Source: Halococcoides cellulosivorans
GTDB lineage: Archaea > Halobacteriota > Halobacteria > Halobacteriales > Haloarculaceae
Direction: 5' to 3'
Length of the DNA stretch: 64,000 nucleotides
Assembly (NCBI RefSeq): GCF_003058365.1
Contig: NZ_CP028858.1
Span: 744,001-808,000 of the forward strand
In this document: piece by piece, positions 28,064 through 61,629 of the stretch
Position numbering within the stretch: position 1 is the stretch's first letter
Layout of the letters: every line of letters starts with the position of its first letter
Translations under genes and position numbers: made by a program
The notes under the pieces: model-generated
The model's database searches: none
The model's input: the letters and a program-made list of their open reading frames with translations, nothing else
What the model was told of the DNA's origin: nothing

Positions 28064-28776
28064 TCTGCATCCACGCGGTCGCGATACTCACGCTCGGCGC
28101 GGCCATTTCCTCACGTCGGACGCGCCGCTTCGCAGTGCGGTCCTCGTTCAGAAATGGACTTCTTGGAAGATTCGCCACGCTCATCTTCCGCGCTGCTCGA
28201 AAATCGGAGATTTTCGGCATGACGAGAGACGCCGTTCGGCGTCTCTCGAACCACCTCGTTGGCTTTGCTCACGAGGACGCCGGGACTGAGCGGCGACAGT
28301 GTCGCCGCGAAGGTTGAGGGACGCGAATGCGTCCCTCAGAACTGAGCAAAATCTTCGATTTTGCGACGGTCGGTGAGGGAACGACTGGGCGAACACAGTG
28401 AGCCAAGGAAGTGGACTCGCCGGGACTGAGCGAAGCCGACGGCTTCGCGAAGGTCGAACGGCGGCTCCGCCGCCGTTCGGGATTTGAACCAGAGGAAGAC
28501 GGTCCGGGGTGCTCGCTCACTCCGTTCGTTTCGCTCCCGGGCGTGCGACTTCCAGGGTTCAAATCCACGCGTTCGCTGCGCTCACGCTCGGCTCATCCAT
28601 TCTCGCACCCTCGTAGAACTCGGTCGCTCCGATGGACTCGCTGGAAGATTCGCTTCGCTCATCTTCCAAGCCCTCGCTCGCTACGCTCACGAGGACGCCG
28701 GGACTGAGCAAAATCTTTGATTTTGCGAGGGTCGGCGAGTCCACTGACCGAAGTGAGCGCAGCGAACGAAGGGGAG
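28064..28776. repeat. hairpin-dense non-coding tract with repeated flanking words
   Basis: No believable gene lies here. The tract holds many perfect palindromes: 28198-28216 (8-bp stem, loop GGA), 28223-28248 (12-bp stem), 28290-28308 (8 bp, AGT), 28315-28338 (10 bp, GAAT), 28346-28364 (8 bp, TTC), 28431-28447 (7 bp, GAC), 28455-28479 (11 bp, TCC) and 28708-28726 (8 bp, TTT). Four of them sit between the words ACTGAGC and GCGANGGTYG (28285, 28341, 28425, 28703). Longer words also recur: cgaggacgccgggactgagc at 28272 and 28690, and ggaagattcgc...gctcatcttcc at 28165 and 28642. The tract also contains copies of the tRNA-Ala 3' end. Confidence 0.85.
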
Positions 28777-28848
28777 TGGACTCGCCGGGATTTGAACCCG
28801 GGGCCTCTTCCTTGCGAAGGAAGCGATCTGCCACTGATCTACGAGCCC
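28777..28848 (-). tRNA. tRNA-Ala (anticodon CGC)
   Basis: On the minus strand the 72-nt sequence folds as a tRNA. The acceptor stem is GGGCTCG/CGAGTCC (one G-T pair), the D arm GATC...GATC, the anticodon stem CTTCC/GGAAG with loop TTCGCAA (anticodon CGC), and the T arm CCGGG-TTCAAAT-CCCGG with discriminator A. No CCA is encoded. Its 3' end faces the hairpin tract, where pieces of the same 3' end recur. Confidence 0.93.
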
Positions 28849-61421: not shown

Positions 61422-61447
61422 ATTAGTCCCGGGCGGATTCGAACCGC
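61422..61447 (-). repeat. 26-bp copy of the tRNA-Gln 3' end
   Basis: The 26 bp at 61422-61447 are identical to 61555-61580, the 3' terminus and T arm of tRNA-Gln. The copies are direct repeats 133 bp apart. A third piece, gaatccgcccggg, is inverted at 61488-61500. This is typical of an attachment-site duplication, but no integrase is near. Confidence 0.8.
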
Positions 61448-61556: not shown

Positions 61557-61629
61557 TAGTCCCGGGCGGATTCGAACCGCCGTCAGTGGCTCCAAAGGCC
61601 ACTATGATTGGCCACTACACCACGGGACT
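61557..61629 (-). tRNA. tRNA-Gln (anticodon TTG)
   Basis: The minus strand folds as a 73-nt tRNA. The acceptor stem is AGTCCCG/CGGGACT, the anticodon stem GTGGC/GCCAC with loop CTTTGGA (anticodon TTG, reading CAA), and the T arm GGCGG-TTCGAAT-CCGCC. The discriminator is A and no CCA is encoded. Confidence 0.93.

What the first reader, a model, noticed from the sequence alone, without database searches (positions are those of the whole stretch)
28198..28734. Modular palindrome cassettes between constant words (ACTGAGC - N15 - GCGANGGTYG)
Four sites (28285, 28341, 28425, 28703) have the same flanks and a 15-nt centre that is always a perfect palindrome (6-bp arms, 3-nt loop) but of different sequence: GGCGAC-AGT-GTCGCC, AAAATC-TTC-GATTTT, GAAGCC-GAC-GGCTTC, AAAATC-TTT-GATTTT. 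Conserved borders with variable but self-complementary centres point to a mechanism that keeps pairing while sequence changes, such as template-switch replication, a structure-recognising protein, or a hairpin mini-element. I know no named family with this form.
Basis: seen in the sequence. Interest (0 to 1): 0.75.

Follow-up and report, generated by a model that had tools for sequence, protein, structure and literature searches.

The report
Hairpin cassettes beside haloarchaeal tRNA genes
The four "palindrome cassettes" are real: they are interchangeable DNA hairpin tips of small non-coding cassettes that salt-loving archaea collect in arrays next to their tRNA genes, each cassette marked off by copies of that tRNA's tail, which points to an undescribed family of tiny mobile DNA pieces.

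Summary
All four sites exist, and the whole genome holds 12, all exactly 30 nt, 10 with perfect 6-bp arms. A GTDB-wide scan gives 86 haloarchaeal sites (69 perfect) against 33 chance sites in other taxa (none perfect). Among 143 distinct hairpins, 831 of 858 pairs are Watson-Crick. G·T and A·C mismatches are equally rare (8, 10), unlike tRNA stems here (11, 0), and loops are mostly GNA or its reverse complement: the constraint looks like DNA, not RNA.

The hairpin is one of several alternative "caps" of 60-390 bp non-coding cassettes, bounded by direct copies of the neighbouring tRNA's 3' end and mostly containing an inverted copy. In this genome 21 of 55 tRNA genes have downstream copies (29, against 3 upstream); 25 tRNA genes of non-haloarchaeal relatives have none. 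At one tRNA-Arg locus, 28 of 30 Haloarcula species carry 1-4 cassettes in different orders, and one 48-nt cassette body carries either of two caps. A 4.1-kb integrase element occupies one slot of such an array.

Best reading: miniature non-autonomous integrative cassettes using tRNA 3' ends as att cores, with a hairpin recognised structurally. Mobility and enzyme are inferred.

The parts
28285..28314 (+). Cap hairpin 1: ACTGAGC-GGCGAC-AGT-GTCGCC-GCGAAGGT
28315..28338 (+). Second hairpin (hp2) of the unit: TGAGGGACGC-GAAT-GCGTCCCTCA; with cap 1 it makes a 56-nt step to cap 2, like the 55-nt steps seen in Haloarcula
   Evidence: sequence; 55-nt spacing in L048 and L060
28341..28370 (+). Cap hairpin 2: ACTGAGC-AAAATC-TTC-GATTTT-GCGACGGT
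28413..28424 (+). D, distal direct copy of the tRNA-Ala 3' end (GGACTCGCCGGG); border of the tRNA-proximal cassette
28425..28454 (+). Cap hairpin 3, directly abutting D: ACTGAGC-GAAGCC-GAC-GGCTTC-GCGAAGGT
28455..28479 (+). Second hairpin (hp2): CGAACGGCGGC-TCC-GCCGCCGTTCG
   Evidence: sequence
28479..28566 (+). T-type cap: GGGATTTGAACC (28479-28490) ... GGGTTCAAATCC (28555-28566), an inverted pair of tRNA T-loop-like words around a hairpin
28703..28732 (+). Cap hairpin 4: ACTGAGC-AAAATC-TTT-GATTTT-GCGAGGGT
28733..28744 (+). I, inverted copy of the tRNA-Ala 3' end (CGGCGAGTCCAC)
   Evidence: sequence
28745..28777 (+). Linker between I and the tRNA gene
   Evidence: sequence
28778..28789 (+). 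D within the tRNA gene itself (antisense of its last 12 nt before the discriminator base)
28776..28848 (-). tRNA-Ala(CGC), the gene next to which the array lies
61425..61436 (+). D copy of the other tRNA gene of the window (AGTCCCGGGCGG), bordering a second cassette of T-type
61557..61629 (-). tRNA-Gln(TTG), whose 3' end (61558-61569) is the other border of that cassette

Best explanation
The palindromes are the tip ('cap') of small non-coding cassettes that accumulate on the 3' side of tRNA genes in haloarchaea. A cassette reads D - cap - I - linker - D(tRNA), where D is a copy of the 12-16 nt 3' end of that tRNA gene, breaking at the T-stem/T-loop border, and I is its inverted copy. Inferred: cassettes are miniature, non-autonomous relatives of integrative elements, moved by a tyrosine recombinase that uses D as att core, the full-size relative being the integrase element found in one slot. 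Also inferred, less firmly: the recombinogenic form is folded single-stranded or extruded DNA, in which D pairs with I and the cap folds into a very stable DNA hairpin that is read by its structure and border words. That would keep pairing while letting the stem sequence drift. The tRNA survives because each event leaves an intact 3' end.
For: Pairing: 69 of 86 haloarchaeal sites perfect against 0 of 33 elsewhere; 143 caps, positions 4-5 use all four pair types, 98% paired against 32% after shuffling; orthologous compensatory changes. DNA rather than RNA: G·T 8, A·C 10 in caps against 11 and 0 in tRNA stems, Fisher p 0.0035; GNA 69 and TNC 27 of 143 loops, GNA loops being exceptionally stable in DNA (PMC4686876). 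Cassettes: 79 of 172 caps have their left flank repeated downstream, nearly always followed by a tRNA T-loop; 21 of 55 own tRNA genes, 29 copies downstream against 3 upstream; 20 of 29 cassettes with an inverted copy; three other haloarchaea 11 of 30 tRNA genes; 0 of 25 in other Halobacteriota. Integrase element inside the array with the same D at both ends.
Against: No movement was seen directly and no enzyme is tied to the cassettes; the one integrase in an array is broken by a stop codon. About 40% of caps lie away from any tRNA T-arm word, e.g. after stop codons or in a second repeat family, so tRNA targeting is not the whole story. Several own-genome cassettes lack a clear inverted copy. 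Cap cassettes share only GGGA with the tRNA beyond D, less than T-type cassettes do. No copy was found in plasmid, phage or viral collections. Loss between short direct repeats needs no recombinase: PMC3119063 reports such deletions in Haloquadratum.
Confidence: 0.5

Rival explanations
1. RNA element: the hairpins are conserved structures in transcripts (3' UTRs, read-through or antisense RNA of tRNA genes) and pairing is kept by selection on RNA.
For: Compensatory changes at orthologous sites, including directly after the rpsJ stop codon in Haloarcula; stable RNA folds; hairpins lie upstream of some RNA 3' ends in Haloferax and one terminated transcription in a reporter (PMC7237163).
Against: G·T is no commoner than A·C among mismatches, unlike tRNA stems of the same genome. 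Loops occur as GNA and as its reverse complement. Neighbouring ORFs lie on the same or the opposite strand equally often (53 against 54). Presence, number and kind differ between close species. No Rfam match.
Confidence: 0.17
2. Mutational mechanism: template switching or fold-back replication copies one arm to the other and makes inverted copies of tRNA ends, with no function or mobility.
For: I arms match the 3' end of their own tRNA (longest run mean 7.0 against 4.2 for other tRNA types); both transition and transversion pairs are exchanged at positions 4-5; loops appear in both orientations.
Against: It would also repair the GA/GAR internal loop and the mismatched borders, which instead persist across many genera. 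It does not explain shared caps, en-bloc cap swapping or cassettes 97-99% identical across genera.
Confidence: 0.15
3. REP-like extragenic palindromes spread by a Y1 (RAYT/IS200-type) transposase acting on hairpins.
For: Small intergenic hairpins with conserved borders and lineage-specific stems, some near-identical within a genome (Salinarchaeum), as in bacterial REP families (PMC3733652).
Against: No Y1 transposase in four genomes that carry the caps, including one with 11 copies; no cap within about 1.5 kb of 19 Y1 loci. No GTAG or CGTC tag.
Confidence: 0.1
4. Passive remnants: att sites left by unrelated tRNA-integrating viruses and plasmids after internal deletion, kept because they do no harm.
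For: D repeats reach from the T-loop border to the tRNA 3' end, as in ordinary tRNA integration; haloviruses use partial tRNA genes as attP (PMC7230728); an integrase element lies in one array.
Against: Shared anatomy, sizes of about 60-190 bp, a limited set of cap types reused at many tRNA genes, and one cassette nearly identical across genera look like a propagating unit, not independent wreckage.
Confidence: 0.08

Closest known systems
tRNA-targeted integrative elements of archaea (tyrosine recombinases; review PMC8371274)
   Same: Direct copies of the tRNA 3' end at both borders, intact tRNA kept, fixed orientation to the tRNA; one integrase element shares the same borders.
   Different: Cassettes are 60-390 bp, code for nothing, are stacked in arrays, carry an inverted copy of the tRNA end and interchangeable hairpin caps.
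Integron cassettes and attC sites (PMC2727003)
   Same: Cassette arrays of varying order; hairpin with conserved border words, an unpaired internal loop, an offset in the lower stem and a variable tip (compare UCS, EHB and VTS of attC).
   Different: No GTTRRRY/RYYYAAC boxes, no genes, no intI/attI found, target is a tRNA 3' end.
REP/BIME elements and REP-associated transposases (PMC3733652)
   Same: Short extragenic hairpins with constant tag and lineage-specific stems.
   Different: No GTAG/CGTC tag, far more stem variety within one genome, no Y1 transposase needed, tRNA-end borders.
PATEs and SMRs of Haloquadratum (PMC3119063)
   Same: Transposase-free haloarchaeal repeats with palindromes and short conserved terminal oligonucleotides; deletions between short direct repeats are also described there.
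   Different: PATEs are tied to IS605-type ends; nothing there describes tRNA-end-bounded arrays.
tyrT repeats of E. coli with copies of the tRNA-Tyr 3' end (from memory, not checked here)
   Same: Tandem non-coding units downstream of a tRNA gene, each holding a copy of the tRNA 3' end.
   Different: One locus of near-identical units, no hairpin caps or cassette variety as seen here.

Membership tests
tRNA-targeted integrative element | Direct repeat of the tRNA 3' end at both borders | tested here: met
   21 of 55 own tRNA genes, 29 downstream copies against 3 upstream; 79 of 172 caps
tRNA-targeted integrative element | Encodes its own integrase | tested here: not met
   Cassettes of 60-390 bp have no room; only the 4.1-kb element in L468 has one, broken by a stop codon
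tRNA-targeted integrative element | Excises and integrates by site-specific recombination | not testable with these tools
   Only comparative gain and loss between D copies is seen
Integron cassette / attC | R boxes GTTRRRY / RYYYAAC | tested here: not met
   Border words are ACTGAGC/GCGARGGT and variants
Integron cassette / attC | Structured single-strand site with unpaired spacer, extrahelical base and variable tip | tested here: inconclusive
   The predicted DNA fold has a lower stem, a GA/GAR internal loop, an upper stem and a variable tip; use as a single strand was not tested
Integron cassette / attC | IntI integrase and attI site | not tested
   No search for intI was made
REP / RAYT | GTAG or CGTC tag at the hairpin foot | tested here: not met
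   Hairpin foot is CTGA|GC ... GC|GARGG
REP / RAYT | Y1 transposase in genomes with the repeats, often flanked by them | tested here: not met
   PF01797 absent in G359, G168, G016, G070; no cap near 19 Y1 loci
Structured non-coding RNA | Compensatory base-pair changes | tested here: met
Structured non-coding RNA | Tolerance of G·U over A·C on the transcribed strand | tested here: not met
   8 against 10 in caps, 11 against 0 in tRNA stems
Structured non-coding RNA | Matches a described RNA family | tested here: not met
   Rfam: only tRNA above threshold
Virus- or plasmid-borne element | Copies in viral or plasmid collections | tested here: not met
   IMG/VR hits non-palindromic; the cassette tested is absent from PLSDB and INPHARED

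The most novel reading that the evidence does not exclude
Haloarchaea carry an integron-like system without genes: arrays of non-coding DNA cassettes that move as folded single strands (a dumbbell of D paired with I, closed by the cap hairpin on one side and the linker on the other) and dock at tRNA 3' ends through a structure-reading recombinase.
Probability: 0.2. Interest if true: 0.9.

Novelty: new variant of a known kind. Interest (0 to 1): 0.72.

Why it matters
It would explain a large share of the odd palindromic intergenic DNA of haloarchaea, give a natural case where a hairpin is kept by structure rather than sequence, and show tRNA genes as docking sites for tiny gene-free cassettes. 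If the folded-strand model is right, it would be a second, independent route to integron-like recombination, in archaea and without cargo genes. It also warns annotators: these regions are called as short ORFs and tRNA fragments.

Tried and rejected
K-turn / L7Ae reading of the GA/GA loop: no 3-nt bulge with a paired C-stem on either strand (inspection). Stop-codon-linked 3' UTR terminator: attractive from Haloarcula arrays that start at ...GAC TGA GC, but over 113 sites in intergenic position the left neighbour is + in 53 and - in 54 (ORF calls are approximate). REP/RAYT: no Y1 transposase correlation. Virus- or plasmid-borne element: no copies. Rfam: nothing but tRNA. Loop inversion at orthologous sites: L060 against L195 shows ACA against TGT, but a deletion between two neighbouring caps explains it as well. 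Literature searches found no description of tRNA-end-bounded cassette arrays; subscription journals are mostly missing, so prior description cannot be excluded.

Full report
Observation. The four sites are exactly as described. With the gap between the words left free over 31 lengths, the whole genome gives 12 hits of exactly 30 nt plus one chance hit; 10 of the 12 centres are perfect palindromes, two have one mismatch, and the reversed-pattern control gives none. A scan of the GTDB collection gives a natural control: 86 haloarchaeal sites, 69 perfect, against 33 sites in unrelated taxa, none perfect. Seventeen hits in viral contigs are all non-palindromic. The pattern is therefore not chance and not a property of the flanking words alone.

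Refined hairpin. In 143 distinct caps from many genera, each of the six arm positions is 93-99% Watson-Crick; positions 4 and 5 use all four pair types and fall to about 32% on shuffling, so they covary strongly. Positions 1-2 are purines on the 5' side, position 3 mostly A, and position 6 is almost always C-G, closing a triloop. Loops are GNA in 69 and the reverse complement TNC in 27 of 143. DNA triloops of the form C-GNA-G are known to be extraordinarily stable (PMC4686876). One genus has 5-bp arms with the same loops. Folding shows a lower stem GACT/GGTC and an internal loop GA/GAR made by the 'constant' words, and those words covary as sets: ACTGAGC with GCGARGGT, AGTGAGC with GCGANCTA, ATTGAGC with GCGATGTT.

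DNA or RNA. If an RNA helix were selected, G·U pairs should be tolerated above A·C. In the caps G·T is 8 and A·C 10 (the set was filtered for at least 5 of 6 pairs, which does not favour one kind of mismatch); in tRNA acceptor and T stems of this genome the numbers are 11 and 0 (Fisher p 0.0035). Neighbouring ORFs show no strand preference. This points to DNA.

Orthologous sites. After the rpsJ stop codon in Haloarcula, about ten species have a hairpin at the same place with different but paired stems, for example GTGAAGC/GCTTCAC against GCGAAGC/GCTTCGC; others have none, and one has an exact empty form ACTGAGC-GAGGGTCG. Flank-anchored pairs show AGAATC/GATTCT against AGACTC/GAGTCT, GAAGCC/GGCTTC against GAACGC/GCGTTC, and a 6-bp stem against a 7-bp stem.

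The cassettes. In 79 of 172 cap sites the 9-25 nt left of the cap recur within 300 nt, nearly always followed by ATTTGAACC or a close variant, which is the T-loop of a tRNA gene on the opposite strand. The copied stretch is the tRNA 3' end and breaks at the T-stem/T-loop border. Taking all 55 tRNA genes of this genome, 21 have at least one copy of their own 3'-terminal 12-mer within 1.2 kb downstream (29 copies) against 3 copies upstream; a mid-tRNA control word gives 1 and 3. The intervening cassettes are 69-386 bp; 20 of 29 contain an inverted copy of the tRNA end. Both tRNA genes of the window have such copies (28413-28424 and 61425-61436). The same occurs in three other haloarchaea (11 of 30 tRNA genes) and in none of 25 tRNA genes of other Halobacteriota families.

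Cassette dynamics. At tRNA-Arg(CCT), 28 of 30 Haloarcula genomes carry one to four cassettes of about a dozen kinds in different orders, gained or lost exactly between D copies. One cassette body of 48 nt, differing at no more than a few positions, carries cap A (ACTGAGC-GAAACC-GNA-GGTTTC-GCGARGGT) in some species and cap B (AGTGAGC-AAACGC-NNN-GCGTTT-GCGARCTA) in others, about ten of 30 nt apart. Caps are therefore exchanged as units. The same cassette is found in five genera at 85-99% identity, while flanks of the pairs compared are at background. In this genome a 4.1-kb element with a tyrosine integrase (Phage_int_SAM_1 and Phage_integrase matches, one internal stop) lies between two cap cassettes at tRNA-Ala(GGC), with the same D at both its ends.

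Mechanism. The most economical reading is that cassettes are miniature non-autonomous integrative elements using the tRNA 3' end as att core. The inverted copy I means that a single strand of a cassette can fold with D paired to I, giving a double-stranded att site with the cap hairpin at one end; this is reminiscent of attC sites, where stems vary and structure is read (PMC2727003). Steps shown: anatomy, distribution, gain and loss, cap exchange, pairing. Steps inferred: recombinase, single-strand form, role of the cap.

Limits. Caps also occur outside tRNA context: 27 of 178 in a second repeat family with GGGACTGAAAGGGGC ends, and 47 elsewhere, including directly after stop codons. ORF calls were approximate. 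The non-haloarchaeal comparison is small. Prior description in papers not held here cannot be excluded.

Noticed in passing
L046, L051, L053, L057, L062, L302 and similar loci: A second repeat family in Haloarcula, Halobacterium and Salinarchaeum: cap plus second hairpin followed by GGGACTGAAAGGGGC, a variable perfect stem, a conserved GACGCAAGCACYGCAG-like loop, and GGGGCTTTCTGGCTG. No Rfam match in the loci tested.
   Followed up: partly
L468 (own genome 1783000-1789500): A 4.1-kb integrative element at tRNA-Ala(GGC) lies between two cap cassettes; its tyrosine integrase gene is interrupted by one stop codon.
   Followed up: yes
L064-L092, rpsJ 3' flank in Haloarcula: Arrays of zero to four different hairpins between the rpsJ stop codon and the tRNA-Ala(CGC) promoter; the first often starts at the stop codon itself (GAC TGA GC).
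   Followed up: partly
own genome tRNA-Ser(CGA), L349: Three cassettes of 69, 69 and 93 bp next to the tRNA; the two 69-bp ones are nearly identical.
   Followed up: no
window 28154-28277: Upstream of the first cap lie further perfect hairpins, e.g. CGAAAATC-GGA-GATTTTCG (28198-28216) and CGAGAGACGCC-GTTC-GGCGTCTCTCG, joined by words such as GGCATGA; the AAAATC stem recurs in other borders.
   Followed up: no
L367 and L381: Another cap type, AGTCACGCGAGCGAAGCGAGYGTGACNACGG, in two different families of haloarchaea at tRNA-Gly-like and tRNA-Ala-like 3' ends.
   Followed up: no
L008 (own genome near 2032400): A degenerate tRNA-Cys-like sequence whose 3' half is replaced by a cap and second hairpin, beside the intact tRNA-Cys.
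   Followed up: no
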